From Psococerastis gibbosa (lineage: Eukaryota; Arthropoda; Insecta; Psocodea; Psocidae): 64,000 nucleotides of DNA. The stretch spans positions 44,265,469 to 44,329,468 of the forward strand of contig OZ020485.1 of NCBI GenBank assembly GCA_963971405.1. Direction: 5' to 3'. Each line of letters opens with the position of its first letter. The first letter of the stretch is position 1. Of this stretch, positions 12,722 through 63,646 are shown piece after piece. Under the pieces are notes generated by a model. That model searched no databases and was not told the DNA's origin. It saw only the letters and a list, made by a program, of their open reading frames with translations. The position numbers were made by a program, and so were the translations under genes.

Positions 12722-15700
12722 CTAAGACGTCAGCAACACCCCTTTCTCTGTAGTAGTTCTCTTCCCCTTCTTCGGAGGCTTCACACTATCGGTGACGAGC
12801 TCGTCGTAGTCCTCTATCTCGTCCGTGTCGGGGCTGCTGGTCACCAGGGGGACCGGCAGACCTCCTCCGTCCTCGGGTCGCACCACAGCGAACCCGTTCT
12901 GCCCCATTCGTATGCAGTCGAAGTTGAATGTGAACGCCGTCTCTCTGTTCCACTGAGTTTCCAGGTCTACGCACGCGTGTATGTTCCGTTCGATAAAGTA
13001 GACGTTGTTGAAGCGAAGACAAACACGAAGGCTAGTGAGGCGCGGAATCGGTAAGCATAGTGGTGGTGGATCTTTACCTGGAATAAGAGAAACATCTTAA
13101 ATATTATCCTTATGCTCCACTTCGTCCATCTACGACATATTTGAAAGATAGAGTCCGTTAAACCATCTAGTAGGCTAACTGGTAGATTCTCATTAACATT
13201 CATGGTGCTTAGGACCTTAAGCTTAGGACTTTTGTGGTCTATTGGACCTTGCATTTCGGCTATTGGCTATGGTGACAGGAAGAGAAGCCAAGCCCATGAC
13301 GTTAGCGTCCGACCCGGTCGAGTAAAAGAAATGGGTCCGGGCGACCCCCTCTCGCTGCGCACGCGGGACTAAGATGGATGAAGAAGAAAGAAGAAGAATC
13401 CTATGGTGTCTGTATACCATTTTCCTGTCAACCCTTTTCTGCAGCTTCCTTTGGGCTACACATACTTTGGATACATCTCCATTGGACCTCGAAATAGGTT
13501 TCAACCTCAAGGATGTGTTTGGTGTAGCATTCTGAGATTCTTTCATAAGCTAAACAGTGCTATTACCGATCTATTCTAATATTAAAATGTTAGTCTTACC
13601 TGAAACTCGGTTGGAATAAAAAGTCTTGTCGTTGAGTTGAACTTTAACACCAATACTAAAGTCGTCAGGTTCGTAGGTGAAAATACTGCAGACTCGATTT
13701 CTTACGTTTATCGTGAAAAAATGTAGTATAGCACCTGTGCAACATCGGCATGACCCTTCCTTACAAGTACATGGTCTCGGTGATGTTCCTGAAGTATTTC
13801 TGTAGCCTCTCAGTAAATCAAGTGAGATGTCGTTTGTTCCTGTGAAACAAATTAGAAATGATTGCGAGTAGGTTATTATTGTGTGCCCCCTTACACTGAA
13901 ACCATGCACAGCCACAGCGTTATTGCATTATACAATTATAGATACATATATATGTCACTGCATGTTTTTGTAAAGTTCAAATAAAGTGCTGGTTTTATTA
14001 GCTGCGTCAATTTACATTGTCGTCTCTGATTAGGGGTATAAAGTATTGTTTCCCCTCACCTATGTCCTTTGATCTGGTGTCTGCACTGTGTACATGGAAA
14101 GAGCAGACGTTTGACTATATAATCATTACAAGTTACAAAACAATCCTTCTCAACTTACCATTAACCAGAGACCAAATCTTTGCCTTTAGTTCCGGGGAGT
14201 TTTTTTCGATTTGAAACTGTGAAATGAGGGTGCTGATTGCTGCAAATTATAAGTAAACTTTTTATTATTGGAGGTAAATTCCAATTGTTTATTTATATTA
14301 CTAAAACGGTAAATACATATGCTTCGGAGGGCATGTAAAGCTGGTTCCGGGCTTGTTGAGTGTAAGAGAGCCCTAACTCCGATAGATTGGCATAGTAATA
14401 GAACAAAAACAGTCAATATTTTTTATTTATATATTTAAATAATGTGATTTTTTGCGGAAAATGACGTTGGCCTCGAAATTTTATGTTTTTTGGGCTACTG
14501 AATCCGATTCTGTCATTTCCCAACAAAATTTCGGGGCGGAACTTTGCCAAAAATGCAAAAGGACGGAAAAAAAACCATGCTTCTCGCTGTCACCATCAAT
14601 TTTTTCAAACAAATTTACAGTATCTATTCCAAAGGAAAGACCATGAAACTTTCTACAAATCCATTGCTTAAGATTTTTGTTTATGATCAATGGTTTCAGC
14701 TTAACCAGGGAGCTCCGAAATCGCCCTGTTCAGCTGCATCCTCCAAATGTCTTTACTCCCCAAATGAAGGTACCTACTGCCAGAAATGAACAATGATCGT
14801 TAGCTTTTCGTAGATTTACAACCTGATGCCTCTGAACCGCAATATTTTTGGAATTGGAAAAACTGGGAGAGTCAAAGACATTTGGAAGACGCAGCTGGAC
14901 AAAGCGATTTTGGAGCTCCTTCTTAGGTTCAAACCATTGATCATATAGAAAAACTCTGTAGCAAAGGATATGCAGAAGCTTTTCTGGTATTTAATTTAGA
15001 ATAGATAAATGCTTTACCGAGCTGTAGCGAGAAAATCGCGGAGAGACGTGCTTTTTTTCACTTCTTTTACATTTTTGGCAAAGTTCCACCCCGAAAATTC
15101 GGTGGTAAATGACAGAATCTAATTCAGCACCCCCAATAAATATTAAAAAACAAAAAAATTTCTCCGCAAAAAACTACAAATTGTCGTATTATTAGGGCGA
15201 ATCAGACTAACTTAGGCTAAATAGGTCGATATTGTATGTTTCGTATTGAGTGACTAAGTCCAATTTATTGATTCAACTTTTCAGCCATACTTGTGTATTT
15301 CTTTCACTCACTTTTCACTATTTCCCTTGTCAAGTAATAATTATAAAAATAATAAATATATAAATAACGATAAATAATAATAATAATAATAAGCATATAT
15401 TGAAGGCAAGCTGCTGAGACGTTATTCCGTTAATCCGATTTGACAAATATAGAGATATACGATATACAGTAAATTAAATATATTGACTTCCCAGTTTCGT
15501 GATTTTCTGAGATGAATCAAATGAAAGTAAGGTCAAACTGCGGAAGCAAGTGCTTTCTTATTTTCCCAGATAAGATAGGCGTTCGCAATTACTGCGTAAT
15601 GTAATATTTTGTAAGTATACTGCATTGGCGTAAATAGGGGGGTCCTGGGGGGGCTTAGCCCCCCCAGGTCCACCCGTGCCTAGCCCCCCCCCATGATTTT

Positions 15701-18612: not shown

Positions 18613-21600
18613 TTATAATCGGTCAAGATTCATTCTTTTATGAACTCTGCTACTTCGCCCTCTCATTGAGTCGGTGGGAATGCTGGGTGTGAACCTCCAG
18701 GCTGGCCTAAGGAACCAATTTTGTTGAGACCTACCCTTCTTCACTTCTGCTACTATGTGTCTAATCTTTTTAATTTGCCTTTCTTCATCATCCCCTCCTA
18801 AACCTATGTCACCGTCACCCTCTATCCCTACATCTTCATCTTCTTCTTCCTCTTCTGACACGTTGTCAGAAACCTTTTCACTTACACTCTCTGCTGGTGC
18901 AGCTGTTGATTCTTCAGCCTGACTAGTTGTCAGATCTTGTTTCTTTTCGTCAGATTCGTAGTCTATGACTTCATCAATGATGGGTTCTTTCTCTTCGTTA
19001 CTATCAACTAAATTAGTTTCAGGTTTTTTGTCGGAGTTTTGAATTATAGACGCAGCTGCCTGAACTTCGGGTACTTTTTCGTCTTCACCATCAGCATCTT
19101 CGTCGTCATCGTCAACGTCCAAAACACTAAAAATATCATCTTCTGCTGCTGGTTCCTTTTCATCACTTTCGTCGTCGTCATCATCATCGTCATCATCGTC
19201 AACAACACCGGACAAAATATCATCGCCGTCGTCCTCCTCTTCTGATTCATCGCTTGGTTTTTCTTGTTTTACAGGTACTTTCTTTTTGTCGCTATTGAAT
19301 GTATTTCTCTTGTTGTCATCCCCACCAATGATTGAGTCAAATAAATCATCATCAGGATCCTCTTCAGATTCCTCACTTGCTTGATCTTGTTTCACGGGTT
19401 GTTTAATACTGTTACTCTCCACAGATTCTTCATCTTCTTCGTTGCTTTCATCATCATCATCATCATCATCATCGTCATCTTCTATAAAAAATTAGAAAAA
19501 GCGTTAATGACTTGAAATACACATGTTTGAGGTTTTACCAGCAACTATTGTAATTAACTAGAAAGTATTAAATTAGTTTATGAAACCTTTAATGAATATT
19601 CCCAGCGAACTGTTGCAATTAGTAGTACTGTAGTCTTTTAGAAGTGATTATTTAATTATTATCAATATTGGTTATGGTATACTAATAATAGTTAATGTGT
19701 TGTTTGTTGTTTCTTACGCCTGCTTTCAGCTTTTCTGCTTTAAGCAACCCTGTCAGCCTGGCGGGGGGAGTGAGTCTGTTTGTTAACTTGAGGCACCCTA
19801 AGGGCAGACTCTTTCACCTCGGGGAAAGGGGAGTTGACAGACAGGGTGGACCTCCTGATTACAGTGGATTCCGAACCACTTGGAGAACATGGTAAAGTCA
19901 CACGATTAATTCGGAGGTGACCAGGACTCGATACGCACGTAGACTGACTGGTATAGTCTCAGCGCGATATCATCTCCCACCATGTTCCCCTGCCAACGCT
20001 GTACACACTACCAAGTTGCCGCAGTTTGAAACATGCTCTGCTCTAATGGATTCAACATGGTGAGGCCGTTGGCAGTAATAGTTAATGTAATTTTGTTACT
20101 CAACGCCATTTTATTTGCATTGGCTGCCTCGTTGAAAGTTAAAATATTAATAATAATGCTCCAATCAATGGGTTTTTAGGTTTAAGAATTTATTTAGCCA
20201 GGTGGCAGCTAATATAGACTAGATTGCGAATTGGAAAGAGTTCCGAAATTCGAAAGAGGTGCGTGACCTGCCATTTATTTATTCATAAAATGTAATTAAT
20301 TCTTATCACTAGCTGTCATATTGAACCTAGCCGAGTAACTGTATTGAAATTAAACTACGTACCAGCATCATCATCATCATCATCATCATCTTCACCGTCA
20401 TCATCATCCCCGAGAAAGTCAATGTCATCGTCGTCGTCGTCATCATCGTCTACTGGTTTCTTTACGGGCTTAGCATTAATTGAGCTTGACGGGAGGTCAC
20501 CCTTCTTCATCTGATCAGCTTGTTTCGGAGATGTGGTAGTAGTTGTCGCCGGCTTCTTCCCCACAGGCTTACTGGTTTTTTTCTTGTCCGAAGATATCTT
20601 TGTAATTTTGGCAACTTCATCAATCATTCCTTCAAAAAGATCATCTTCGTCATCTGATTCATCCTCTTCGGCCGCAACTTTCAAGTTATTCTTTACAACC
20701 TCATCAGTAGCCACCTCTTCAATTTGGGGGTTTGTTGAAGGAGTTGTCCCAGGTGTGACGATAACTGTGGCAGGAACGTTTTGTTGTGCCATAGCTGCTA
20801 CTGCTTCTACTTTCGCAACATCAATCATAGGAATTGTTGGCTGCGTACTAGGAGACGCAATTGTTGTAGTGGTAACTCTTATTTCGCTCACTTCTGATGT
20901 ACTAGGAACATTATCATTTACCGTTGATACTTCAATCATTGTCGTTTCAGTTGACTTAACATTTGGCATTTCCGTAGTACTTGTCGCTGCTTTGGCTGTT
21001 GTTAAAGTTGTCGCTACCGTTGTGGTAGATTCTTGCACTATATTACCAGGAACATGCTCTGTTGGCTTAAGAATTTCTTTTAGGGGCTTCTTTGGTCGCA
21101 GTGTTACTCTGTTTATTGGCCTCTGGGTTATTGTAATTCGAGGTGGGTTTGGACGAACTGTTGGTCTTGAAAACGGCAATAGAGGTTTTCTCGTAGTTGT
21201 ACTTATAGTCGCTGCGTCCTTAATCGGTTTTGCCGTCTTGATTTTCTTTTTCTTTTTATTTCCACTGTCGTCATCGCCAAATAAACCACCAAAGAAGTCT
21301 TCGTCTAAAACGCTAAACCCAGCATAGTCTGCGGAATCTTCTACTTCGTTATCTTCCTCTTCCGAGGCCTCATCGTCGTCATCAACATCTAAACCAAAAG
21401 CATCTTCATCGTCATCATCATCATCGTCATCGTCATCATCATCGTCGTCATCTAACCCATAGTCATCGTCGTCATCGTCATTTTCATTTTCTTTTTCGTC
21501 TGACGGTACTGGCGGTGCTGCTTCCAGACTTACACCTTTAGGGCCAAATTTAAAGCATGACACTCTTAATGCAGCTTCAATATCATCCAATGCTCGCAGT

Positions 21601-22467
21601 TCTAGTCCGAGGCAAGCCTTAAATTGTTCACCTGACCTTGAAATGCCATATACTCGTCCACAAAACTGGGAAATACCGCCTGGAAGACCCATGCAAACAG
21701 GCTTTGGCTTCTTCCCAGAGATTGTCCTGTTCGCTAGTACCCGATCTCCGAACGACATGGAGACCATCATGTTGTCGCCTTGGAGGTATTGCAGTGAAGC
21801 GCACCCTGGTCCTTTGATTGGCACAACCGGCAGCGAAAAGTCTCGGCAGCAGTTGCATTGGTTTGCTGAACAGGCGCAATAACGGTTTGGTGGCCCCTGC
21901 CGCTTCTGGGGTTTCTTTGCTCGACTTTTCCGGACATCTTTATTACTTTCTGAAAGAGTAGGTTTAAAAAATGATTACTTTATGGCACATGTTTTTTAAA
22001 TTGAGTTTAATTGAGTGAGGGGCGTTGGCGTAATAAGGGGGGTATGGGAGGGGGAGCTGTCTTGCTCGACTGTTTTAATGTATTAGTCTGGTAATCTCGG
22101 AGTTTAGGACTGTTCTTTTGTCATTGGTTATGTTTGAATATGCATTGCAATCACGGATATTGATATCTTAAAGGTTTTGTAGCCACCACCCACCTCCCCG
22201 CCCCAACTAGCGAGGCACTGGGGGCACGGAACACATGGGGTTATAAGACCTCCCCTCCAGGTATTTTGGTAAATTTACGCCAATAATTGTTAATGTTTTT
22301 AATGTCAATCTACTAAAAAACTACAATATCATCATGGAGTATTCAAATATTTTAAAATACAAATAATTCCGATGATACTTGATTGAAATCTTACCTATAA
22401 CTCCTGCCGCTGCAAACGCGAGAAAAAGAAAGACTAGTAGAAGCTCCACAATGAAGGATAAACGCAT
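18613..22467 (-). CDS. Secreted DUF4773 protein 3 with very acidic tail, complete, 3 exons
   Basis: Exons (minus strand): 22467-22395, 21949-20363, 19481-18613. Both joints are phase 1; 2,529 nt, 842 aa. Residues 1-24 are a signal peptide (MRLSFIVELLLVFLFLAFAA). The DUF4773 domain lies at about 49-170: CACSANQCNCC, SGKKPKPVCMGLP, FKACLGLEL, SCFKFGPKG. The remaining 670 residues are low-complexity. They contain several poly-Asp/Glu runs separated by short hydrophobic blocks (DDLFEGMI, DDIFSVLD, FSVLDEDFF, DDDLFDSII), a Thr/Pro/Val-rich middle and a basic end. Poly-Asp tracts suggest cation (perhaps calcium) binding, which is inference. Intron 2 falls inside a poly-Asp run, so GAT repeats lie at both exon edges. 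A TTTGCAG acceptor 17 bp before the ATG implies a further 5'UTR exon. Confidence 0.9.
19723..20062 (+). mobile_element. SINE-C-like repeat copy
   Basis: Near-identical to 59175-59515: TGCTTTAAGCAACCCTGTCAG, GAGGCACCCTAAGGGCAGAC, TCTCAGCGCG. A reverse fragment lies at 12300. Class not certain; length and copy similarity suggest a young non-autonomous element. Lies in intron 2 of DUF4773 gene 3. Confidence 0.7.
22024..22285. mobile_element. hAT-like element, GC-tract type
   Basis: GTTGGCGTAATAAGG at the left and AAATTTACGCCAAT at the right. The interior (TTTTGTCATTGGTTATGTTTG, then CCACCTCCCC) matches the element at 40748-41097. Lies in intron 1 of DUF4773 gene 3. Confidence 0.6.
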
Positions 22468-50246: not shown

Positions 50247-53200
50247 TTATTCTTTCACTCCACCACTAACAACACTATCAATAAATCTAGAAATTTCTAC
50301 ATTCGCGAGGTTGGTGTAGACTCCAGGGTAACCATCTTCAGCACAACCATAGCTCCATGAGGTTATGCCAATTTGGGCGCCATTTTGAACGAGGGGACCT
50401 CCGGTGTCGCTGTTGCAGGCGTCTTTCCCTTCCACTCCCGCGCAGATCATCCTCGTGGTAACGTCACCAGCGTAGATATCAGTGCAGTCCAATCGAGCCA
50501 CCACTGGAATGTCCACTGCAAGCAGTTGTCCAGACTGTGGGCCTTCTTCCTGAACAAAATTTGTTTTTGTTTTACAACTATACGTCTAAACAATAGCCTA
50601 TATTTATAGGCACTTATTGTTGTGTCATCATAAAATATTTATTAATTAAATTTAATTTTAATGTGTGAGGGACTACACGGTGGAGGGCCCAAGACCTATA
50701 GGACGACCGAGGATGTCCCTTGAAACGAAAGTGAGGGAGGACCTCAGGACCCTCGGTCTCTCACCGGACGATACTCAAAACCGGAACACCTGGAAGATTA
50801 AGATCCGTGCCGCCAACCCCGTCAGAGGGATAAGGCGCTGTTAAAGTAAGTAGATTGATCATAATTGTCACTGTATTATTATTGTTTATTTAATTTTTTA
50901 GTTCCATTCGATTTTTGATACCTTTGAACCTTTCTCTAGAAACCTACCGTCAATATCAATCGAAAGACTATCAGAACCGGTATCAGATACAGGAGAATCC
51001 CGGCTGAAGGGCCGTGGTTGACCTTCCATACGTTTCGTCAACATCTGTGGTAGACGTCATCAGTATAGCACTACATAGTAGATAGATAGATTGCATCTCC
51101 GAGCCTCAGTTTATAGCTTCTGATACTGCTTATTACAATGGATGGCGGAAGGTTTCCAATTTGGAGCGGGTTCATGTCTAAAGAACGACATTATATCTGG
51201 ACCAGTTCCGGGGGTGTAGTGGGCTTGAAATGCCCCCAATTGCACAATTGCAGGGGGAATCCCTACACAAATTAAATAACGTCCAAATCAGCAGGTCTGT
51301 ACACCCCCCCCCTTCCCCCGTCATAGCTGATTACTGATTACTAGCCAATGAGCCTCTGAGCTACAGTCGTAAAAGTCTGCGTACAATGCCACTGATGATG
51401 TCGACAGCGTGATGTTGACGAAATGTTCGGAAGTACTCGGGCAGTTCGACCCGGACCCATCAGTCCGGATTCAGCTGTATGATCAAGCTTACCGATGTTC
51501 TGCCCCATCCTGTAGCCCTCACTATGTCGGCAGCGGCAGGCTCCTTTTTCGTAACGTTGACTGCGGTTGTGGTCTCATCAAATCTGAACGGGAAGCCCAG
51601 TTCGAGAACGGCCACGTCGTAGTCGTTCAAATAGTCATCGTACTTTGGGTGTATGTTTATACGGTAGACTTGGTACAATTGTCCGCCACTGTTTAGTCGT
51701 GAAGTGCCTGCTCTGATTGTTAGCTGTCTTTGAGAGAACCTGCATGTTATAAAGTAGAAAAATTAAAAGATAAAATAGGTACAGTAGTAGCCTATATGAT
51801 AATTCAATTGTAGCCTATATATTATTTGTGTAGACTCTACTCTAGACTCTAGGTCCATTTCCCACCACTATGACCAGTGGCGTAGCCAGTCCCCCCCCCC
51901 CCGTATTTTCGTAAAATAGTAGAAAAATAGGAAAATGGACGTACGCATCTTCTAATTAGGGGCGTGATCTTAATTTCCCCACCTAGGGGTCGGGGGGCTG
52001 AAGGGGGCCCCGGGGGTCTCCCCCGGGGAAAGTGTTTGAAAAAAAAAATAGGCCTGAAATTGTGGAGTTTTACACATTTTGATGTATATATGTCTGGTAA
52101 CCTAATAATATCTGTAGTCTAATAATGTTTAGGTTTTACAGCCGAAGAATAGTAGACCTACTGCAAGAAAGGGGGGCCCGGGGGTCTCCCCCGGGGGATT
52201 TATTTTGAAAATGAATAGGCACAAAATAGTGGAATTTCCGCACTTTGAAAGGAGCTATGCTCATACTTAACATATGAAGAATATTACAGCGAACAAGGGG
52301 GAACAGCGAACAAATATGACAGGCCTGAAATAGTTTGTCGGCAAAAAAAAAAAAAATTGATTTTGCAGACGATAACATTATTAACAAAACTAGAAACAGG
52401 GGGACCGGAGTCTCCCCGCGGAATTTTTTTTAATAAATATCTGAAAAATTTTCTGTTTTGCTACTTTTTTTTTTTTGAGGGGGGGTCCGGACCCCGCTGA
52501 CCCCCCTTGGCTACGCCACTGACTATGACAGAGTGAGAATGCCCGTATATTCAGCCTCTGTATCATAGGCCTATTTGTATGTAATTAAATTCAAATAATT
52601 ATTAATTTATTATTTTGTGGCACATTTTGTAAGAATAACGTCATTTAATCGTTTTGGATTTGTATCTGTTGATTGTGCAATAAATATGTACATGTATCTA
52701 TTTATTTACTAACTTATAATCTCGAAACAGTAGGCCTAAGTACGGAATAATTGCATCAGCAGAAACTTAAGAGTGTAATACCTACGTCCCGTAGGAAATT
52801 GGCGGCCCGAAATTGAATACTTTATATTTTTTATTGAAATAACTATAACGAAGTTATTGAAATATTGGTTCATTTAAGTTGTAGAAGACTACTTCATGCA
52901 TAATATTGTATAATATGGTATTATTAATGGTTTTGCAGTTTTTTCATGGTACCTATAGTATTATACCCAAAATTTTAGCTCTAAATCATTTTTATGAAAA
53001 AGCTACGGTAGGTACCAAAAATTAAAAATATCGTTTTATATGATGCATGAAGGAGTCTTCTACAACTTAAATGAGACAAATCTTTAATATCTTATTATCT
53101 TGCTTATTTAATGAAATAAAAAATTAAGAAACATGCAAAACAACAGATTTTGGGGTACGGGACCGTACTTATTTTCTACGGGACTTGTACACTCTTAAAG

Positions 53201-54617
53201 TACCGTATCTGCACTGTCACATATCCCCAGCTAATACAATAATAATATATTTGACATGTCGTGAACGCGCTCTATAGACAAACATTTGAAAAGAGAAGCC
53301 TACCCATCTACACAACTGGCGCTTGTAAGAGCAAAGAAGGGATCAATGATGGAAGCTCCGCAAATTTGGTATCCATCATACTGCAGTTGGGCCTGGTAAG
53401 GCACTTCTTCCACTGTTACCGCGCTCCCCCCTACTATTTTGGGCCGTCCGTGGATTTTGGCACCGCGGCGAGGGTTCCCTGAAATCCAAAGCTCAGCTTT
53501 ATATTATTACAACACCTACTGTATATGAAACTTCACAGTATACATGCGGGATAAGTTCAAAAAGTATTAAATCAGGACATGTAGCGTAGTGGTACGGACT
53601 CTGACTTTCACCCGAAAGGTTGTTGGTTCGAGTCCCACACTACCTACATTTTCTGGCCATGCTTCGAAGGGCATGTAAAAGCAGGCGGTCCCGGGCCATC
53701 CTAGTTGAGTGTATGAGAGGGCTTTATAGTCCTAACTCCGCTAGGTTGTCTTAGTAATAGAAACAATAGAAAGTTTATTTATTTATTTAAATTGACAGTA
53801 AAACTATGCCGATGATGTGCTTTCCCCTACATTTTTTTGACTATGCAATATCTTTTTACTCTAATAAAGGACTCGAATCTGTACTTGGTTAAGTCATGCT
53901 TTCGCCTGTTTCATTGTGTAAATTGCAAGCTTGTCTCAGCTTGTCCATTATCACTTGAAGCCGGTGTAGGTTGACATTGAGAACGTATACCGGCCAGTTT
54001 GCCAATGACCAAAAGTTAATACGGAAACAATGCAAATAATGTCCGAAATCCATGGGGTTTGGCCAGTGGCGGCGCTAGAAATTTAAAGGCGGGGGGCCAT
54101 GGGGGGCATGACTTCTATCCGGGGGGGCCAACGAAAAAACGAAACATTTTTCATTGGGAGTAGGTATACTGTTCAATAATTCTCCAATTTAAGAACATGT
54201 AAAATATCTGAAAAGTGGGGGGGCCACGGAGGGGCCGGAGAAACTGTTGGGGGGGGGGGGGGGCAGGCCCCCTCGGGCACCCCCGTAGCCGTAGCGCCAC
54301 CACTGGGTATGGCCAAGGGACCTAAGTACTATAAGTAAGCCTGGGTCCATAAAAAGTCCTTCAAAAAAAAAAATTTAAACTAACTAACATCGGATTTTGA
54401 CTCGTACCCGTTGCTAATACATGCTTCAGCCTTTCACACTGTGATAATAAGAATCACAAAAAAAATATTTATTAACATTTATGAAAATGCGAATTTATCG
54501 CCATATTTTCAAAGTGCTAGGCCTAGGCTTACATCATTAAATTACATGGACCCCTATAAACTTACCTGAGCTGAGGACCAAAAGGCAAAATAAACCAAGA
54601 ATTGTTATTGCCTTCAT
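50247..54617 (-). CDS. Serine protease homologue 1 (trypsin fold, catalytic His and Ser replaced)
   Basis: Exons (minus strand): 54617-54566, 53478-53304, 51739-51493, 50549-50247. Joint phases are 1, 2 and 0; 777 nt, 258 aa. Residues 1-18 are a signal peptide (MKAITILGLFCLLVLSS), followed by a short basic pro-region ending RPK. IVGG is at 32-35. The usual LTAAHC box reads LTSASC, so Ser72 replaces the catalytic His. The Asp is kept (Asp117 in DYDVAVLEL). The GDSGGP box reads SDTGGP, so Thr207 replaces the catalytic Ser. Asp201, at the position that gives trypsin its Arg/Lys pocket, is retained. Six cysteines pair as in trypsins. It is therefore a secreted pseudoprotease (S1 family), possibly a cofactor or binding protein; that role is inference. 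Repeats fill all three introns. Confidence 0.92.
50680..50844 (+). mobile_element. Non-LTR retrotransposon ORF2 end, relic
   Basis: The plus frame reads GRPRM, REDLRTLGLSPDD, NRNTWKIKIRAANP and then TAA. This is a common C-terminal signature of reverse-transcriptase-bearing elements. Lies in intron 3 of serine protease homologue 1. Confidence 0.55.
51027..51430. repeat. Inverted pair of hammerhead-like motifs
   Basis: The plus strand holds CTGATGA (51392-51398), a possible short stem, and GAAA (51420-51423). The minus strand holds CTGATGA (51063-51057) and GAAA (51036-51033) with similar spacing. Such cores occur in Penelope-like elements. Lies in intron 3 of serine protease homologue 1. Confidence 0.35.
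51875..52521. mobile_element. hAT-type element (647 bp) with perfect 8-bp duplication
   Basis: CAGTGGCGTAGCCAGT and TTGGCTACGCCACTG are inverted ends. ACTATGAC lies on both sides (51867-51874, 52522-52529). The interior repeats CCGGGGGTCTCCCCCGGG-like units. Lies in intron 2 of serine protease homologue 1. Confidence 0.92.
52771..53193. mobile_element. TTAA-flanked MITE-F copy 3
   Basis: TTAA at 52767 and 53194; ends GAGTGTAATACC and GGACTTGTACACTC. More diverged than the copies at 23011 and 44460. Confidence 0.75.
53573..53795 (+). mobile_element. SINE-A copy
   Basis: CAGGACATGTAGCGTAGTGG head, GGTTCGAGTCCCACAC box B, TTTATTTATTTA end. Confidence 0.8.
53883..54350 (+). repeat. Dispersed repeat R1 copy 2, interrupted by hAT
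   Basis: Matches 42475-42735. The hAT element at 54064-54305 splits it within GGTTTGGC/GGTATGGC. Confidence 0.7.
54064..54305. mobile_element. hAT-type MITE, 7/8 target duplication
   Basis: CAGTGGCGGCGCTAG at the left and GTAGCGCCACCACTG at the right. The flanks GGTTTGGC and GGTATGGC differ at one base. Confidence 0.85.
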
Positions 54618-54848
54618 AATCAACAAAAAAAAAAACACATCCAAAAGCAAATGCTTGAAAGCCTAGTAGTGAGTGCTTGATATCTAAAACATAGGCATAG
54701 GCATAATCTGGCTGTCATCAAGCTGATAATTTGGATTGATAATACTATGATCAGCCATTGTTCTAACAACCGTTTCAATTTTGTCCCTAATGCAAGAGAC
54801 TAGGCTATAAATGAAAAGGGTATGCTTTATAGCGTTGCTGCTTCCTAA

Positions 54849-55232
54849 GGCGCCCATTCCGCCGACCGGCTAGGGCTATTTACAAAAACGGTGACGTGGT
54901 AGCAGACATTCAAGACTTAGGTTGCGTTTCTACCGACCTCGCATTGCAGAATGCAAATGACATTGACGGAAATTAGAATTTTTCTTTTTATAGAAATCTA
55001 TTAAAATGTTTGTACTTAACATATCCCATGACGCCATTTTTTAATTTTAGTTTGTTTGTTTGTGATTTTACTGTATGATCATTGACCAATTTTAACTATA
55101 GCATAGAGAAAAATATACATTTCCGTCAATTCTGCAATGCGAGGTCGGTGGAAACCCCGCCTAAGTCTTGAATGTCTGCTACCTCGTCACTGTTTTTGTA
55201 AATAGCCCTAGCCGGTCGGTGGAATGGGCGCC
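54849..55232. mobile_element. MITE-A copy 4
   Basis: TAA-GGCGCCCATTCCGCCGACC to GGTCGGTGGAATGGGCGCC-TAA. This is the only copy with the same TAA on both sides, so a 3-bp duplication is possible. Confidence 0.9.
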
Positions 55233-55712
55233 TAAGGTCTTATTCTTACAGTTATGCCAACAGTCTACTGGAATAGTCACTTGCCCGGCTAACCATCGCA
55301 AGGGCGCTTGCTTACTTTTGGTGTACTCAGTTACGGTATATTTGCACATAATCGCAAGGAGCGGAAGAGAACCTGCAGTATCGCTGACCCCTCTTAGGGA
55401 TAAAAACTAGGAAAAAGTAAAAGGTATAGCTAGTTAGTTACGGTCTATATGACCATCTAGGGGACTCTATACAATAAAATAATTATTATAATTAATATTA
55501 GCATGAAAACAAGACTTTATAGTCTTATTTTTCGCCTTTTGTTTTGTTTACAATAAAGTCGTATTTTCATTTCATTACAATGTAATGCACTATAAACTAT
55601 AGGCCTACCCTAATTTCATCGGTGCTCTCTTGCTCGTCTATAATTATTCTCCTTGACCATTGCCGTTACACAAGTCTTTTATCACTTGAGGGAGCCTACC
55701 CATCAGTACAGT

Positions 55713-56100
55713 GCCGGATTAACCCCTGGGGGGGGGGGGCACAAGATATGGGGGGGGCACAAGATATGGGGGGGGGGGGCGTGGGTGCAAACCAGAGGCG
55801 GTCCCAGACCTCAGACTTGTCAGTGGCGTAACGATAGGTTTTCGAAGAGAGCGGTGTATAATATGGCAACCCTCCACCCATTTTCATAAAAGTGTATAAA
55901 ATGGGGAAAGTCATTCTCATGGACGTACGCAGCCTTTAAAATTTTGAGAGGAATAAGGTTTATAAATTGCAGGCAATTAATATAATTGTGAACAAGGGGG
56001 GCCCGGGGGTGTCCCCCGAGAGAAAATGTTTGAATTATCATTTGAAAGAAATTCTTCACAACGTACACGCCCCTTATAAAGGGGTAAATACCATATTATT
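55713..56100. mobile_element. hAT-like composite remnant
   Basis: CAGTGCCGGATTAACCCC at the left is the end type seen at 37382; CAGTGGCGTAACGATAGG follows at 55811. The right end is not clear. Confidence 0.5.
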
Positions 56101-56109
56101 AACTTGTCA

Positions 56110-56580
56110 TTAGGGTTAAAAATCTAAATAATAAACCAATAATTGTGAATAGCACTTTCCATTCTAAGATTACCTTGTTTACATTTTTAATCCCAGGTTA
56201 GGCGGGTATTCCACATACGTCAATCGTCAATGAAAAATTGAAAAATGACGTTTTAGCAGACATTTTTTTTTTTTTTTTTTTTTTAAATGATTAATCGCAT
56301 CAAACAATTTTAATGAATGCATCCGATTGACCTCTTCAGTCGCCTCTGTAGGTTAGTACCCGTGTTGAGTTACGACACGTCTCCAATCGCATGGCGTGTG
56401 AAGACTCGCACAAGTGCAAGCACGTTACCACCTGGCCATCGAAGTCGATTAAAGACATACTAAAAATTCTGTTACCACGTCAATTTACGTCATTGTTACG
56501 TCATTTTTCAATTTTTCATTGACGATTGACGTATGTGGAATACCCGCATTAAGATTAAAAATAATCGCCCGCAGATGTAG
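56110..56580. mobile_element. MITE-E fragment with nested GGCGGGTATTCCAC palindrome and SINE-B
   Basis: The MITE-E core (GCACTTTCCATTCTAAGATT) precedes GGCGGGTATTCCACATACGTC (56204). Its mirror GACGTATGTGGAATACCCGC ends near 56548, followed by AAAATAATCGCC. A SINE-B copy (minus strand, 56263-56450, T-run first) sits in the centre of the palindrome. Confidence 0.75.
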
Positions 56581-57110
56581 GGTTAGTAGCCTACAACAAA
56601 ATAATATTTGAAATGTACGTAATTGATAATTTGTCTAAGTCTTTGCTTTCCTCATTGTTTTTTTTTTACAAATTAATTATTTAGTCACGCCCGTAACAGA
56701 TTTTAACATAATGGAATTACAAATTTACAATAAGTGTAATATTATGCCTGTTTAAACGCTGGGAAATATTGAAAAGCCGAAAGCCCGAGGCCCCTTTTGG
56801 GAGGCGAGATTGTACAAACTTAAAGTTCTAATGCCCGATCCAATGACTAATACCTACTTATCATTTAAGTGAGGCTTATTAATTTGTTATTCTTATTTTG
56901 GTTATTATTATTGAATTTGCTGACGTAGTTAGGCTTATAGCCTATGAGATAATAATAAAAATAATAATAAGATATTAGTGTTAATTAATTTTTAAGTATA
57001 TTTCGTCGAATCATACCTAAGTGTTCATTATTGTACAATAAAAATGTACAATAAAAATGTTAAATTCAAATGTCCCGCCTAATTTGAGTATCGATTCTCG
57101 TTACTCATTA

Positions 57111-57300
57111 CAGGGACGGATCCTTGGGGGGGCGACCCCCCACCGCCCCCCCCCCCCCCCCGAGAAAAATAGCTTTATACTAGATAGAATGGACTTTTGA
57201 AGGAAATGAAGAGAAATTATTACTCAAGTAAGGAAAACGCGATATTTTTCAGGCCACCGCCCCCCCCCCCCCCCGAAAACCTTTTCTGAAACCGTCCCTG
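57111..57300. mobile_element. hAT-type MITE with perfect 8-bp duplication
   Basis: CAGGGACGGATCC and AACCGTCCCTG ends; ACTCATTA on both sides (57103-57110, 57301-57308); two C tracts inside. Confidence 0.9.
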
Positions 57301-57423
57301 ACTCATTACCGGTGTTCGGTACCTAGTATCGTTGAAAAGAAAACAGCATCAACTGATTCCGAGTCCTGCCTTTTTACCTCCAGATGTATAAGTCAGCACC
57401 AAAATTACACAACAATTATATTA

Positions 57424-60400
57424 TTACAATCCAGTAACATCCTTAATAAAAGAGCGTATTTCAGGGTTAGCAATATTAACATAAACATCGGGTTTTCCAG
57501 CGCGACCGCAGCCGTACCCCCAGGACGACAGTCCAACTAATGTGTTGTTGACGGCCAAAATGGAGGCGTTGTCCGCGTCACACGTCACTCCATTCGGATT
57601 TCCAGCGCAGAGCATTCGGTCGGTGACTGGAAAAACGTCTGCAAACGCCGTTCGACATGTTGCTTGATTGCTGATGGTCACGTTGGTAGCTCTTACGTAC
57701 ACCATAATGGCACCTCCGTCCTTAAATAGAAAAAAATGAAGATATAAAATTAATGTGAACTTTGCTCCGGTAAGACCGTGGTATATAGGTAGGCTATATA
57801 CGTATCATCAGTGGCGTAGCGTGCCTTAAAATTTTGTGTCAAGCCTTTTCTCTTCTGTACCTTGGAATTTCTGACTGAAATTGCTATACACTATATTGAA
57901 AGGATCCAATCTTCGGGACAATATAGGTATACCCAAGGCAGGGGTTTTTCTTACATCTCGGACTATTTGCAGCTTTTCAGCAAAACTGAGTTCTGAAAAG
58001 GACTTCTTTCGTAATTAGTCCAATACAGAATCACACATGATAAAATCTATGCCATATACACTCAAACATAAACACAGGAAAACCCAATAATTATATAACA
58101 TCCAGCAGAAGCATTATATATATATAGGCCTATACCACCGAATACCATAACACATTTTTTGTATATCACACATGTATTGTATATTGTATGATTGTATTGA
58201 TTGATTGATTGATTGATTGATATGGGTATGTACCACACATTTCAAAAAGGAAGTAAGGCGTATGACTGGGTGGACAATTTTAAAACGCCACTAAATGCAC
58301 TTTTTTGGTCTTAAATTAAAAAAAAAAAAAAATGTTAATCGCTTACAAAGAATTTAATGAATGTATCTGATTGACCTCTTCAGTGGCCACTGTAGGGTAG
58401 CCCCCTGCCCGTGTTGAGTTACGACACGTCTCCGTTTGCATGGCGTCGCTAAGATTTTCTTTCGGGGGGGGGGGGGGGAGTTAAACCCCCATGAACCCCC
58501 CTGGCTACGGCCTTGCATGGCGTGTAATGTGTAAAGACTCGCTCAAGTACAAGCAAGCTACCACCTTACTATCGAAGTCGATTACTTACAGTAATAGATC
58601 CCCAACCAGACATCCGTCCAGTCGTGCCAACGGCAGGAGTAGCTGTAGGCAAAGATATAGGCTTGATGGTCAAATTGTCAATGGTCAGCTCGGGAAATAT
58701 TTCAACAATGCCGATATCGTAGTCCTTTTGTTCGAATGTGTTGTTGTACTGGTCAAATTTAGGATGCAACGTCAGTCCAGAGCATTTGTAGGTTTTCCCG
58801 TCGTAGAGCCGTGTCGTAGTGCCAAATCGTAAAGTGGCTATTGGAAGGTTGACGCTACAAACGATAGAGAGTATAAAATTAATATTTTGGTAATGGAATT
58901 TTGGTTGAAAATTGAAAAATTCTCAGCATAGAGAAAACACGGGAAAACGTCTTTGTAGGATAAAATTAAATAACAGCTTATAATATAATACAACTATATA
59001 TTATATAGTGGCCTACAGGACTTTTGTCCAATGCCAACGACCCCATGGATTTCGGACGACATTTTCATTGTTTCCATATTAATTTTTGGCTATTGGCAAA
59101 CCGTTGTATGTTCTCGGTGACAACCCACATCAGTTACAATCGGCAAGCTTGTTGCTTTCTTGTTTTGTTTTCCAACGCCTGCTTTCAGCATTTCTGCTTT
59201 AAGCAACCCTGTCAGCCTGGCGGGGGGAGTGAGTCTGTTTGTTAACTTGAGGCACCCTAAGGGCAGACTCTTTCACCTCGGGGAAAGGGGAGTTGACAGA
59301 CAGGGTGGACCTCCTGATTATAGTGGATTCCGAACCGATTGGGGAACATGGTAAAGTCACCGATTAATTCGGAGGTGACCAGGACTCAGACTGACTGGTA
59401 TAGTCTCAGCGCGTTATCATGTCCCACCAAGTTCCCCTGCCAACGCTGTGCGCACTACCGAGTTTGCCGCAGTTTGGAACACGCTCTGCTCTCATGAATT
59501 CAACAGTCATGGTATGGCATACAACAACAATTGACAAGCTGAGACAAGCTTGTCAATGACACATTATAACCGGCATATTGTATTAGCATGACTTAACGAA
59601 GCATACAGATATGACTCACATAATAAAATCTCGTCAAAAAAGCAACATACCATACTATATCGCCTTTCCACTGGACGGCGGACTCTTCATATAATGTAGG
59701 TTTTTGTTTCTATTAGGAACGTAGGATACTAGTGGTAGCCAACGTGGTTTAAATAATAAATCAAATCTGTATTACAATACTATTGTCTTCGTTATGCTAT
59801 ACTGCTGCGATATTTGTTAATGGTTAAGTCCAGGGGCGTAAAGGGGGGGGGGGCACGGTCGACTTGCCCCCCCCCCCCCAGCCTCGAGTATTGTAAGACG
59901 TAATTCATACTTCATTGTCCCCTTTGCAGCAATATGAATATAAGCATTCCTTTTTTAGCTTTGTAAAATCTACAGCTATATATACTTTACAACTATTAAA
60001 ATGCGTAAAACCCTACTATTTTGCTCTTATATTTTCAATTTTTCCTTATCCTGCCTGATGACGTCTGACTCAGTTTTGCCCCCGCCATCATTCTAAAACT
60101 TTACGCCTCTGGTTAAGTCTACTACTTCTGCAGACTTTGGCTTTTGTGTCTGGTGGCACCAGAATACCTACAGTACCTAAAATGATCAGAGCACACGCCC
60201 GTGATCAGTGCATATTTTGAGCTGATTATTGCAGCACTGCAGCGATGTGTGCCAATGGATTCCACTGACCCTTGGAAAGGGATTTCTTCTATATTGACTT
60301 CAACCCCACCCAGCATCCTCTCTTGAATGCTACTTGCCACGGAACCTAAAACCAACATAATTTTTGTGAATTGTGAATTAGAACAGACGCCGGCTATTCG

Positions 60401-61010
60401 CGACTGCGAGAATCGCCCGTGCTGTGTGCCGGGCCTATAGCATCAGTGCCGGGTTTGACTATGGGGTCAGGATCGAGGGCCCCCCACAAAAAGGAGGCCC
60501 CCACAAGAAGCCGCAAAATACAAAATTGCAATAGATTAAAAAAACTAAAACAAAAATAAACTTATCGAAATATTTGGCGGGAAATTGGAACGTGCCATGG
60601 CAGTAATGATAAATCGCCGTACTCTATATTCTATTCTATTTTGCATCCTGAGTCTCTATTTTATAAATGATAGTGTGTGATACGTGTATGTGTCAGAGTG
60701 CAAGACTTTTCTGCCCGAGAAAGGGCCCCCATACAATTCCGGCCCAGGGGCCCTCACACAATTCCGGCCCAGGGGCCCCAACACAATTCCGGCCCAGGGG
60801 CCCCCACAAGGCCAATCCCGGCACTGTATAGTATAAGCTCAATTAACTAAGGCCCGGTACATAAGGACGATTCTTGCAATCGCGATTTGCCGACGTCTTT
60901 TCCGTGGTAGGGATATAATAGGCTATACAATATAAGGGTAGAATTAGAAACTCACCATTCAATGCTGCAGCAAAAATGATGAAAAATATTACAGCCACAC
61001 GTGAAAACAT
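57424..61010 (-). CDS. Serine protease homologue 2 (trypsin fold, catalytic His and Ser replaced)
   Basis: Exons (minus strand): 61010-60956, 60345-60177, 58854-58590, 57720-57424. Joint phases are 1, 2 and 0; 786 nt, 261 aa. Residues 1-18 are a signal peptide (MFSRVAVIFFIIFAAALN). A short pro-region ends in Arg28, before MLGG (29-32, in place of IVGG). The His box reads LITGVC, so Val69 replaces the catalytic His. Asp120 is kept (KDYDIGIVEI). The GDSGGP region reads DADNAS, so Asn214 replaces the catalytic Ser and the oxyanion glycine is lost as well. SSWGYGC and the core cysteines remain, so the fold should survive without catalysis. The exon plan equals that of homologue 1. Intron 3 starts with a SINE-B only 7 bp after the donor. 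Confidence 0.92.
58332..58582 (-). mobile_element. SINE-B copy interrupted by a hAT element, abutting an exon
   Basis: Minus-strand SINE-B whose 5' end (ATCGACTTCGATAG) lies at 58582, next to the exon donor at 58589. The hAT remnant at 58447-58515 splits it with CATGGCGT on both sides. Confidence 0.8.
58447..58515. mobile_element. hAT-type MITE remnant in SINE-B
   Basis: The right end CCCCTGGCTACGGCCTTG is typical; the left end is truncated (CGCTAAGATTTTC). The flanking CATGGCGT (58439-58446, 58516-58523) is an exact duplication. Confidence 0.8.
58990..59620 (-). repeat. Dispersed repeat R1 copy 3 with nested SINE-C-like element
   Basis: The reverse of the 42475 repeat, split by a SINE-C-like copy at about 59175-59515 (GCTTTAAGCAACCCTGTCAGC, GTCTCAGCGCG). 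Lies in intron 2 of serine protease homologue 2. Confidence 0.75.
59831..60111. mobile_element. hAT-type MITE with perfect 8-bp duplication
   Basis: CAGGGGCGTAAAG and CTTTACGCCTCTG are inverted ends. GTTAAGTC lies on both sides (59823-59830, 60112-60119). Confidence 0.92.
60444..60826. mobile_element. hAT-type element, 7/8 target duplication
   Basis: CAGTGCCGGGTTTG and CAATCCCGGCACTG ends. The flanks TATAGCAT and TATAGTAT differ at one base. Inside, CAATTCCGGCCCAGGGGCC repeats three times. Confidence 0.85.
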
Positions 61011-61237
61011 CGTATGGTGGGTTTTAATAGAACAATGTGTTAATTTAGGATATAAAATACGGTAGATTATACTAATGTTAAGGGAAAAGTAGCCTATTTG
61101 TACATGTAATAGGTACGAAGTGAGTGATAACTGTAAAATTATCATGAGCTCAGTATAACAATTATTATTTGATAACATAAAATACAGATTAGATTGAGCT
61201 ATTGAGAGTCGCTAGGCTGCCATTCTTATGCGAAACA

Positions 61238-63646
61238 ATGTTAAAGCTCTTCGTTGTAATTTCATACATTGGCAAGTACCGAATTATTATAGTTAGGCTA
61301 ATTATCATTTCACAGTAGGTGGTAGCAGCAAATTTTCAGAAAATATATTCCGTGTTCTCGTATTTTAAAGGTATAGTACTATATAAGAGAACCTACAGCA
61401 TATTCGAATAGTTACTTGTTAGTTGGAGTAGGCTATGGTAGGCTATAGGATTGTAAAGTACAATAAGCATTGCGTAAAATAAAAATATCTGGTAATGTAA
61501 TCTTTGCATAGCTTTTATGCATGGCCAGTAAGATTTGGGACAGGTTATTTTTTAAATTGTGACTACATCGTCCGACTCCTTTATAAGGCTTAGGCGCCCA
61601 TTCCACCATTCCACATTGACGGAAATTAGGATTTTTCATTTTATAGAAATCTATTAAAATGTTTGTACTTAACATATCCCATGACGCCATTTTTTAATTT
61701 TAGTTTGTTTGTTTGTGATTTTACTGTATGATCATTGTCAATTTTTACTGTGGCGCCCATTCCACCGACCGGCTAGGGCTATTTACAAAAACGGTGACGT
61801 GGTAGCAGACATTCAAGACTTAGGAGGGGTTTCCACCGACCTCGCATTGCAGAATTGACGGAAATGTTTATTTTCCTCTATGCCATAGTTAAAATTGATC
61901 AATGATCATACAGTAAAATCACAAACAAACAAACTAAAATTAAAAAATTGCGTCATGGGATATGTTAAGTACAAACATTTTAATAGATTTCTATAAAAAG
62001 AAAAATTCTAATTTCCGTCAATCTCATTTGCATTCTGCAATGTGAGGTTGGTGGAAACGCCACCTGAGTCTTGAATGTCTGCTACCACGTCACCGTTTTT
62101 GTAAATAGCCCTAGCCGGTCGGTGGAATGGGCGCCATAGCAGGACCGATGATACCCCTAGTTCAAGGTCATCGCCATAATGTCCCTTACTTTCGTGACCG
62201 AGTCCCCCGAACCTTGACGAATGGCAACTGTGAGTCTATCCCTCACGGGTATAGATAAGCCTATGCGTGGGCAACCCCATAAAATGTGTTCTACCGTTTC
62301 CGGCTATGCCGGATCCACGCTCCCTGCCACCCCTTAATTCTCCGCTGGATCCGCCTTTGGTCCCGGTTCGCTGCACTGATCGCAAGAGGCAATTTGGGAC
62401 AGGCATAGTCACCCTTAAAACCAACTGGAAATGAAACCGGCATACCCGAGCAGCACAGGCGTTGAAAATGTGTTTTTTTTATTCGCTAAAATTACCCTTA
62501 TTTCTTAAAAAAAGAACACTTACAGTTGAAACGACCGGTATTCCATGTGTTTTGTACTCACTGTCCAAGCCTTACTGCGATCGAGCAATGAATGGAGGAC
62601 CTTGTATCGACTTCGATGGCCAGGTGGTAACGTATGTGCACTTGTGCGAGTCTTTAAACGCCATGCAATCGGAGACGTGTTCTACTCATCACGGGTAATA
62701 ACCTACAGAGGCGACTGAAGAGGTCAATCGGATACATTCATTAAATTGTTTGTATGCGATTAATCTTTTTTTTAATTTAAAAAAAAACCTACGCAATATA
62801 AGGAACTGTTGATAACTTACAGGCTATGTCTGCTGCTCTGGGCAGTTCAGAGATCTGATCGCTGTAGCGGACGCCCCCTTCTATGTGACTATAGAGCTCG
62901 ATAACGGCGTCATAGGTGATGGAGCGCTTCTCGCCCCAAACTGGGTGGTTGTCCTCGGCAGGAGCATAACATGGTATGTGTGTTAGGTCAGGGTTATAGC
63001 CAGAAATTATTTTCGGGAGGGGGGGTCCATCTGACGTCAGCCCACAGCCCCCAATGATATGAAACTGGTCGGATGAAAAATTCATAAAAAATTCAAGATT
63101 TCTCAAAAAGTAGTCTATTACCCCGGATGATTTACAACATACAATTACATCAGTTCAATGTTCTTTAAAAGGATTTTAAAAAAAAAATGTTGGTGCACTC
63201 GAATATCCCATCATCAGAAGTATACGTAGAACTCTTTTATGATTTTCGTAGCTTCGTAGAACATAGGAAAGCACTCTAATAGTGAAATTGAAAAAAACCT
63301 TTTGAAATTAATCAATAATAATAGGCTATAACATAAATAAACCCCTATAATATTTATATTGACTATTCGTATTTTGTTTTCGCTCAGGCTCAGGGATGAT
63401 GACTGGAACAACCACGTACAGATAAGGGCCGGTTCGGATCGCAGATCGGATGGTGGCCAGACAAAGAAGACATTGAACCATACGTGGCACCCAAAGTTCG
63501 ACGCCAACGAGTACGACTACAACGTCGCCATGCTGGAATTGGACGGAGGCTTCAATATTGGCGGCGACATTCAGACTGTATCACTAGGGGGCAAGGAGCC
63601 CCTCGCTGGATCATCCGTGGATGTCACTGGTTATGGATCGTTTCCG
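61238..63646 (+). CDS. Serine protease homologue 3, partial (last exon beyond window)
   Basis: Exons 62823-62973 and 63388-63646 are well supported: phases 1, 2 and 0, as in homologues 1 and 2. Exon 1 at 61238-61271 (MLKLFVVISYI) is tentative; it fits as a signal peptide and in phase, but needs a GC donor (G/GCAAGT). Joined, at least 148 aa. The His box is replaced by WVVVLGRS, so Arg58 stands where the catalytic His would be. The Asp position is Asn107 (DYNVAMLEL). The conserved GWG is GYG. Both cysteines of the loop that normally flanks the His are absent (Gly43 and Ser59). IVGG is not recognisable. The C-terminal exon with the Ser box lies past 64,000. It is the most degraded of the three homologues. 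Confidence 0.8.
61593..61750. mobile_element. MITE-A half copy
   Basis: GGCGCCCATTCCACCATTCCAC, then the MITE-A middle (AGAAATCTATTAAAATG), ending where the full copy at 61752 begins. Confidence 0.75.
61752..62135. mobile_element. MITE-A copy 5
   Basis: GGCGCCCATTCCACCGACCGG to CCGGTCGGTGGAATGGGCGCC; full palindromic arms. Confidence 0.9.
62155..62460 (-). mobile_element. Non-LTR retrotransposon ORF2 relic
   Basis: One minus frame reads ETVEHILWGCPRIG, then IPVRDRLTVAIRQG and a stop. ETxEHIL.xCP is a usual motif near the end of LINE ORF2. Confidence 0.55.
62592..62795 (+). mobile_element. SINE-B copy (intact)
   Basis: Box-A-like GATGGCCAGGTGGTAACG and box-B-like TTGTGCGAGTC, then GGCGACTGAAGAGGTCAATCGG and an A-rich end. 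It stops about 28 bp before exon 2 of serine protease homologue 3. Confidence 0.75.

What the first reader, a model, noticed from the sequence alone, without database searches (positions are those of the whole stretch)
50247..63646. Cluster of three trypsin-fold pseudoproteases, each inactivated differently
Homologue 1 has His-to-Ser and Ser-to-Thr; homologue 2 has His-to-Val and Ser-to-Asn; homologue 3 has His-to-Arg and Asp-to-Asn. All keep open reading frames, signal peptides where seen, core disulphides (1 and 2) and identical 1-2-0 intron phases. Independent loss of catalysis in retained paralogues argues that the fold is kept for something other than proteolysis.
Basis: partly seen in the sequence, partly recalled or inferred. 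Interest (0 to 1): 0.75.

Follow-up and report, generated by a model that had tools for sequence, protein, structure and literature searches.

The report
Cluster of dead trypsin-like insect genes
Four neighbouring insect genes make secreted proteins with a trypsin fold but broken catalytic residues; they look like retained members of a well-known class of non-enzymatic trypsin relatives, and what they do is not known.

Summary
Homologue 1 is S57/D102/T195, homologue 2 V57/D102/N195 and homologue 3 R57/N102/S195. Splice sites read are GT-AG with phases 1-2-0. Exon 4 of homologue 3 and a fourth dead gene (N57/D102/F195) lie just past the window's end. The assembly (409 Mb) looks like an insect's. 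Of 30 related genes read, 17 lack one or more triad residues. Across the family one common origin of inactivity is rejected (AU p 1.3e-7) and parsimony needs 8-10 changes. Inside the window's cluster a single ancestral loss is not rejected (p 0.28-0.31), so "each inactivated differently" does not show "independently inactivated". Neutral decay is unlikely: omega = 1 is rejected, and a recent dead-dead duplicate pair elsewhere has dN/dS 0.145. Single-domain serine protease homologues with such substitutions are catalogued in insects, e.g. among 125 in Tenebrio (PMC11172050, passages). Verdict: real and under constraint, but a new member of a known kind; the function is inferred only.

The parts
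54566..54617 (-). homologue 1, exon 1: candidate signal peptide MKAITILGLFCLLVLSS, donor CAG|GTAAGT, phase 1
   Evidence: scan (hydrophobicity 3.2, 9 of 9 donor positions); the only candidate listed for 53480-57420 minus
53304..53478 (-). homologue 1, exon 2: KIVGG start of the trypsin fold; Ser (AGT) at position 57; ends in phase 2
51493..51739 (-). homologue 1, exon 3: Asp102 kept; ends in phase 0
50247..50549 (-). homologue 1, exon 4: Asp189 kept, Gly193->Ser, Ser195->Thr; stop TAA
60956..61010 (-). homologue 2, exon 1: candidate signal peptide MFSRVAVIFFIIFAAALN, phase 1
   Evidence: scan (hydrophobicity 3.57, 8 of 9 donor positions; the better of 2 candidates listed)
60168..60345 (-). homologue 2, exon 2: RMLGG start; Val (GTG) at position 57; phase 2
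   Evidence: found by protein search, not by the seed profile
58590..58854 (-). homologue 2, exon 3: Asp102 kept; extra Cys; phase 0
57424..57720 (-). homologue 2, exon 4: Ser195->Asn, Gly196->Ala, Gly197->Ser (creates an N-A-S sequon at the former catalytic serine); stop TAA
62823..62973 (+). homologue 3, exon 2: no IVGG activation site; Arg (AGG) at 57; Cys42 and Cys58 both lost; phase 2
   Evidence: not hit by the seed profile at E 0.01 but aligns and lies within the PF00089 match
63388..63646 (+). homologue 3, exon 3: Asp102->Asn; phase 0 donor GTAAGC. Exon 4 follows outside the window (genome C2:44329934-44330236)

Best explanation
A tandem cluster of four (three reaching into the window) secreted, single-domain S1A serine protease homologues (SPHs). 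SHOWN: trypsin fold by sequence, 1-2-0 gene structure shared with intact-triad paralogues in the same genome, each triad broken, frames open far beyond neutral expectation, and purifying selection as an average. INFERRED: they descend from a trypsin-like secreted (probably gut) enzyme, lost His57 early (perhaps once) and then drifted at the freed catalytic positions. They now act by non-covalent binding: a rigid, disulphide-braced trypsin surface that holds protein ligands such as dietary or microbial protease inhibitors, substrates, or partner proteases in the lumen or haemolymph, without cutting. Homologue 1 keeps Lys15-Ile16, Asp189 and Asp194, so it could still be matured and bind a trypsin-type P1 residue. 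Homologue 3 and gene 4 have lost a trypsin-type activation site and the Trp215 segment, so they more likely use another face of the molecule.
For: PF00089 matches for 4 of 4 models, E 5e-51 to 8.9e-24, no other Pfam domain at E 0.001. Phases and GT-AG sites. Residue table at 15, 16, 42, 57, 58, 102, 189, 193-195. Paralogues with intact triads and the same exon structure. For the four genes lnL is -3245.3 with omega free against -3330.4 with omega 1. Stop-survival simulation for h1-h4: 1, 0, 2 and 6 of 400 runs without a stop at 0.25 substitutions per site, and 0, 0, 0 and 2 of 400 at 0.5, while observed synonymous divergence is saturated (124.7 differences at 155.8 sites for h3/h4). Dead-dead recent pair S/T: dN 0.034, dS 0.235, Fisher p 1e-11 on rounded counts. 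Known analogues: 95 Tenebrio SPHs lacking regulatory regions expressed mainly in feeding stages, with interaction with substrates or inhibitors proposed (passages of PMC11172050).
Against: No expression, protein or sister-species data. Fitted omega is unstable because synonymous sites are saturated (0.095 then 0.033 within one run for the four genes, 0.213 then 0.065 for the six, 0.071 then 0.043 for six intact genes), and it averages over time before the loss. A near-copy pair of dead relatives (G/H) has dN/dS 0.46 (still below 1, Fisher p 0.018) and G carries an in-frame stop, so some dead copies in this family do decay. Signal exons of homologue 3 and gene 4 were not found. The binding role is analogy only.
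Confidence: 0.7

Rival explanations
1. Decaying duplicates: the genes lost catalysis because they are no longer needed, and are recent enough that frames are still open.
For: Dead copies are scattered through a much-duplicated family. G at C2:38.739 Mb is a dead copy with an in-frame TGA. Homologue 3 has lost the activation site and a disulphide.
Against: Synonymous sites are saturated in the 3 of 6 cluster pairs tested (h1/h2, h1/h4, h3/h4), yet the exons and splice sites read are intact. Simulated neutral drift gives means of 4.0-5.1 stops per gene already at 0.25 substitutions per site. Omega = 1 is rejected.
Confidence: 0.1
2. Still catalytic by another route: a shifted nucleophile (Thr195 in homologue 1, Ser195 in homologue 3) with a different base, giving weak or specialised hydrolysis.
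For: Homologue 3 keeps Ser195 and homologue 1 has Thr195. A Tenebrio homologue with a Ser->Thr substitution, SerPH122, showed low but detectable activity (passage of PMC11172050).
Against: Both have also lost His57. Homologue 3 lacks Asp102, has Glu194 and no IVGG start. Homologue 1 has Ser at 193 in the oxyanion hole.
Confidence: 0.05
3. Immune cofactors of the kind of clip-domain SPHs, helping to activate prophenoloxidase or Toll cascades.
For: Well-studied insect SPHs work so (start of the abstract of PMC6901238 in the listing; passage of PMC11172050).
Against: No clip match in 4 of 4 models (exon 1 was included for homologue 1 only), and homologue 1 has only some 14 residues between signal peptide and IVGG. 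Other genes in this genome show the Gly195 form (C14:26.87, C14:26.89 and C12:4.38 Mb), recalled as typical of such cofactors; their clip domains were not tested.
Confidence: 0.12
4. Secreted modulators of another organism (host, prey, plant or symbiont), as scabies mite SMIPP-S proteins modulate host complement.
For: SMIPP-S are a functional precedent for a multigene family of dead serine proteases; there the binding site lies away from the residual active site (abstract of PMC4031079).
Against: The window is insect-like, not mite; nothing is known of the animal's life style or of salivary or venom expression.
Confidence: 0.08

Closest known systems
Insect single-domain serine protease homologues without regulatory region (e.g. 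the Tenebrio molitor set, PMC11172050, passages seen)
   Same: S1A fold, mostly secreted, one or more of H57/D102/S195 replaced. Position 195 takes many residues there (G, T, N, L, V, I, A, M, D, E, K, R, Y, F); T, N and F are the ones seen in the cluster.
   Different: In Tenebrio His57->Gln is the commonest change at 57 (55 of 125 SPHs); in this cluster it is S, V, R and N. Gene structure and orthology to the Tenebrio genes not compared.
Scabies mite inactivated serine protease paralogues (SMIPP-S)
   Same: Family of proteolytically inactive serine protease paralogues (abstract of PMC4031079).
   Different: Mite, host-directed; the genome here has odorant-receptor matches. Descent not tested: no molecule named SMIPP among the 60 rows shown of 523, 454 and 342 PDB matches for homologues 1, 2 and 3; gene 4 was not searched.
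Clip-domain SPHs (PPO cofactors)
   Same: Dead S1A domain, secreted (recalled; abstract start of PMC6901238).
   Different: No clip domain in the models.
Der p 3 mite trypsin (PDB 7pzo) and other animal or microbial trypsins
   Same: Best solved relative of homologue 1 (E 4e-44); best for 2 is 4m7g (4e-22) and for 3 is 1fn8 (7.1e-22).
   Different: The aligned Der p 3 chain has TAAHC, a DIAL-type motif and GDSGGP-type motif (alignment), i.e. a full triad.

Membership tests
Peptidase family S1A fold (PF00089) | Match above the family cut-off along the domain | tested here: met
   174.1, 95.2, 85.0 and 123.4 bits against a cut-off of 20.6 for h1-h4
Serine protease homologue (SPH) | One or more of H57, D102, S195 replaced | tested here: met
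   SDT, VDN, RNS, NDF for h1-h4
Serine protease homologue (SPH) | No proteolytic activity | not testable with these tools
   needs recombinant protein
Single-domain insect SPH | Signal peptide and no regulatory domain | tested here: inconclusive
   signal exon candidates for 2 of 4 genes; only Trypsin found in 4 of 4 models, but exon 1 was in the submitted model of h1 only
Clip-domain SPH (homologues 1 and 2) | N-terminal clip domain before the IVGG start | tested here: not met
   no clip match in either model; with the signal exons fewer than 20 residues remain between signal peptide and activation site
Clip-domain SPH (homologue 3 and gene 4) | N-terminal clip domain before the IVGG start | tested here: inconclusive
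   no clip match in the models, but the 5' exon(s) were not found
SMIPP-S | Scabies mite paralogue | tested here: not met
   genome has 6 matches to 7tm_6 odorant receptors, a family recalled as insect-specific; sequence descent from SMIPP-S not tested
Independent inactivation within the cluster | A single dead clade rejected, or each paralogue firmly sister to an intact gene | tested here: inconclusive
   h1-h4 as one clade p 0.132; with two dead relatives p 0.305 / 0.281; intact K placed inside with weak support

The most novel reading that the evidence does not exclude
This insect's single-domain trypsin family repeatedly turns enzymes into selected binding proteins: 8-10 state changes among the genes read, with dead copies then held by purifying selection. 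In two lineages (homologue 2, and E at C2:38.097 Mb) Ser195->Asn together with Ser197 makes an N-glycosylation sequon exactly at the old nucleophile, so a glycan may cap the former active site. Such proteins would be permanent decoys or sponges for protease inhibitors or microbial proteases.
Probability: 0.07. Interest if true: 0.6.

Novelty: new member of a known kind. Interest (0 to 1): 0.32.

Why it matters
SPHs without regulatory domains are numerous in insects and mostly unexplained. One genome with intact and dead near-copies of the same exon structure, some of them closely placed (C14:42581-42583 kb intact against C14:42588-42590 kb Gln57; C15:14694-14698 kb intact against C15:14690-14694 kb Asn57/Arg195), is a usable natural series for asking when and why loss of catalysis is tolerated or selected. 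The window's own cluster is an ordinary instance. The warning it gives is general: different dead residues in neighbours do not show separate losses.

Tried and rejected
Assembly error: judged implausible (triad codons differ by one to three bases, many other differences, the same in many paralogues), though no reads were at hand. Opposite-strand reading at 62792-63154 with a chance HIIGG: not among the matches of the profile search at E 0.01, so dismissed. Other family members in the 50 kb left of homologue 1 or the 27 kb right of gene 4: none at E 0.01 in the profile search of C2:44265469-44365399, but that search also missed exon 2 of homologues 2 and 3, so a very diverged exon could be missed. 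Identification of the species: not achieved; 7tm_6 matches and DUF4773 genes point to an insect, but that these families mark insects or arthropods is recalled. ML omega values: recorded but not trusted because synonymous sites are saturated. Sequon enrichment as a general property of dead copies: not supported. h2 has 5 against a shuffled mean of 2.25 (35 of 500 shuffles as high), and intact K is as enriched (5 of 500) as dead O (10 of 500) and H (2 of 500). Structure prediction was not run: a spliced protein is not read letter for letter from the DNA, so it was unclear that it would be admitted. Papers: searches were seen as listings; PMC11172050 and PMC4085338 as passages; PMC4031079 as abstract and outline.
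Full report
OBSERVATION. The window is G000:C2:44265469-44329468 of a 409 Mb assembly with 68 contigs. At 50247-63646 there are three trypsin-like genes in 1-2-0 exon structure. Homologues 1 and 2 lie on the minus strand and homologue 3 on the plus strand. The splice junctions read are GT-AG. The four proteins share 63-84 identical residues of 219-226 aligned, pair by pair, and each matches Pfam Trypsin and no other Pfam family at E 0.001.

ANATOMY. Homologue 1 keeps Lys15-Ile16, Asp189, Asp194 and the cysteines of three core disulphides, with Ser at 193. Homologue 2 keeps those cysteines and Asp194 but not Asp189. Homologue 3 has no IVGG start, and both cysteines of the 42-58 pair are gone together. 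Gene 4 has Leu15 and Gly189. The segment around Trp215 (SWGYGC in many of the intact paralogues) is replaced in homologue 3 and gene 4 (SSLGC, SSIVGC). Residue positions are from the alignment; the chymotrypsin numbering and disulphide pairing are recalled. So the degree of loss is graded: homologue 1 is closest to an enzyme, homologue 3 furthest.

FAMILY. Searches of the same genome with Pfam Trypsin and with the three proteins gave 152, 126, 56 and 10 matches, which are exons rather than genes and are lower bounds. I read 30 related genes, h1-h4 included, well enough for a table (H lacks position 57, M lacks 102, and several first exons are partial). In 17 of 30 at least one triad residue is replaced. 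The residue at 195 is T, N, F, A, I, D, E, R or H in one or more of them. Among 18 domains read whole in one open frame, one of which is the outgroup of the tree, 6 are not H/D/S. These are the genes that the searches ranked best or that lay near them, not a census. Rows read but left out are listed under Tried and rejected.

ONE LOSS OR MANY. With the three catalytic columns removed, the tree needs 10 changes between dead and intact (bootstrap 9-11), no fewer than with shuffled labels (256 of 500 as low); firmly supported branches alone force only 2. After removing seven long or gappy rows it needs 8 (7-8), of which firmly supported branches force 4. One clade of all 17 dead genes is rejected (p 1.3e-7; this test still held the mis-framed segment of row V). 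In the window's cluster, homologue 3 and gene 4 are sisters (100/98). Homologue 2 groups with two other dead genes, P and O at C2:41.76-41.78 Mb (94/84, 95/94), although the tool warned that the join of homologue 2 with O is one of long branches. Homologue 1 stands alone. One intact gene, K at C2:38.785 Mb, falls inside with weak support. Holding h1-h4 together is not rejected (p 0.132), nor is holding the six dead genes together (p 0.305; 0.281). Codons add detail. Homologue 3 has Ser195 TCT and gene 4 Phe195 TTT, one step away, so Ser195 was lost in gene 4 after the split unless homologue 3 regained it. Homologue 2 (AAC), P (GAC) and O (GAA) form one-step neighbours, as expected if that trio shares one loss. 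His57 is gone in all six, so a single first loss followed by separate later ones fits everything here.

SELECTION. Synonymous sites are saturated in the 3 of 6 cluster pairs tested and in h2/P and h2/O. A codon model with omega fixed at 1 is worse by 85 log-likelihood units for the four genes, by 119 for the six, by 61 for h3, h4 and K, and by 162 for six intact genes. Fitted omega is unstable and not used as a result. Neutral simulation from each gene, without insertions or deletions, gives a mean of 4.0-5.1 stops at 0.25 substitutions per site and leaves 1, 0, 2 and 6 of 400 runs open for h1-h4; at 0.5 it leaves 0, 0, 0 and 2 of 400. These results could in part reflect constraint before the loss. 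The cleanest post-loss test available is elsewhere: S and T at C2:21.845/21.851 Mb, both Ser57/Asn195, differ at dS 0.235 and dN 0.034 (ratio 0.145; Fisher p 1e-11 on rounded counts). The other recent dead pair, G and H at C2:38.74 Mb, has a ratio of 0.46 (Fisher p 0.018) and G has an in-frame stop, so decay also happens in the family.

MECHANISM. Proteolysis is very unlikely: no gene of the cluster has His57. [quoted passage not shown] The passages seen of PMC11172050 give 125 SPHs among 269 sequences in Tenebrio, 102 of them without regulatory region; 95 sequences lacking regulatory regions are described as expressed mainly in feeding stages. They also cite a microarray study in Tribolium in which ten SPH transcripts rose with dietary inhibitors. 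I take binding without cutting as the best explanation. The ligand is unknown, and lumen against haemolymph is undecided.

KNOWN OR NEW. Tandem SP/SPH clusters and 25 SPHs of 90 genes are reported for a planthopper (passages of PMC4085338). The mite SMIPP-S family is a clear functional precedent (abstract of PMC4031079). Against these the present cluster is a new member of a known kind. Two details I did not see in the passages opened or in the listing, which is no proof that they are unpublished: a sequon at the former catalytic serine in two separate lineages, and the shared C-terminal ending PEIRx[FW]I...G[LIA] of homologues 2 and 3, gene 4 and P. The sequon may be chance: Ser197 also occurs without Asn195 (C14b and C15c; C12:4.38 Mb), and Asn195 occurs without a sequon in S and T.

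Noticed in passing
window 57559-57576 (minus), homologue 2; and C2:38.097 Mb (gene E, L114): Ser195->Asn combined with Ser at 197 creates an N-X-S glycosylation sequon at the old nucleophile in two separate lineages; the third Asn195 lineage (S/T) has no sequon there.
   Followed up: partly
window 8354-9127, 12728-13927, 20361-21974 (minus): Three DUF4773 (PF15998) genes or gene parts in a row on one strand, the last followed by an Asp-rich open frame at 18619-19491 without a Pfam match.
   Followed up: partly
window 4299-4664 (plus): Aquaporin (MIP) exon.
   Followed up: no
L080-L083, C2:38739340-38748380: Near-copy dead pair G and H with Val195 and Ile195; G has an in-frame TGA in its last exon.
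   Followed up: partly
C12:9.25 Mb (L005), C12:45.92 Mb (L017, L018): Long open frames whose trypsin domains read H/N/S, H/D/F and R/D/M.
   Followed up: no
G000: Only 6 exon-level matches to the odorant-receptor family 7tm_6, which suggests an odorant-receptor-poor insect or very diverged receptors.
   Followed up: no
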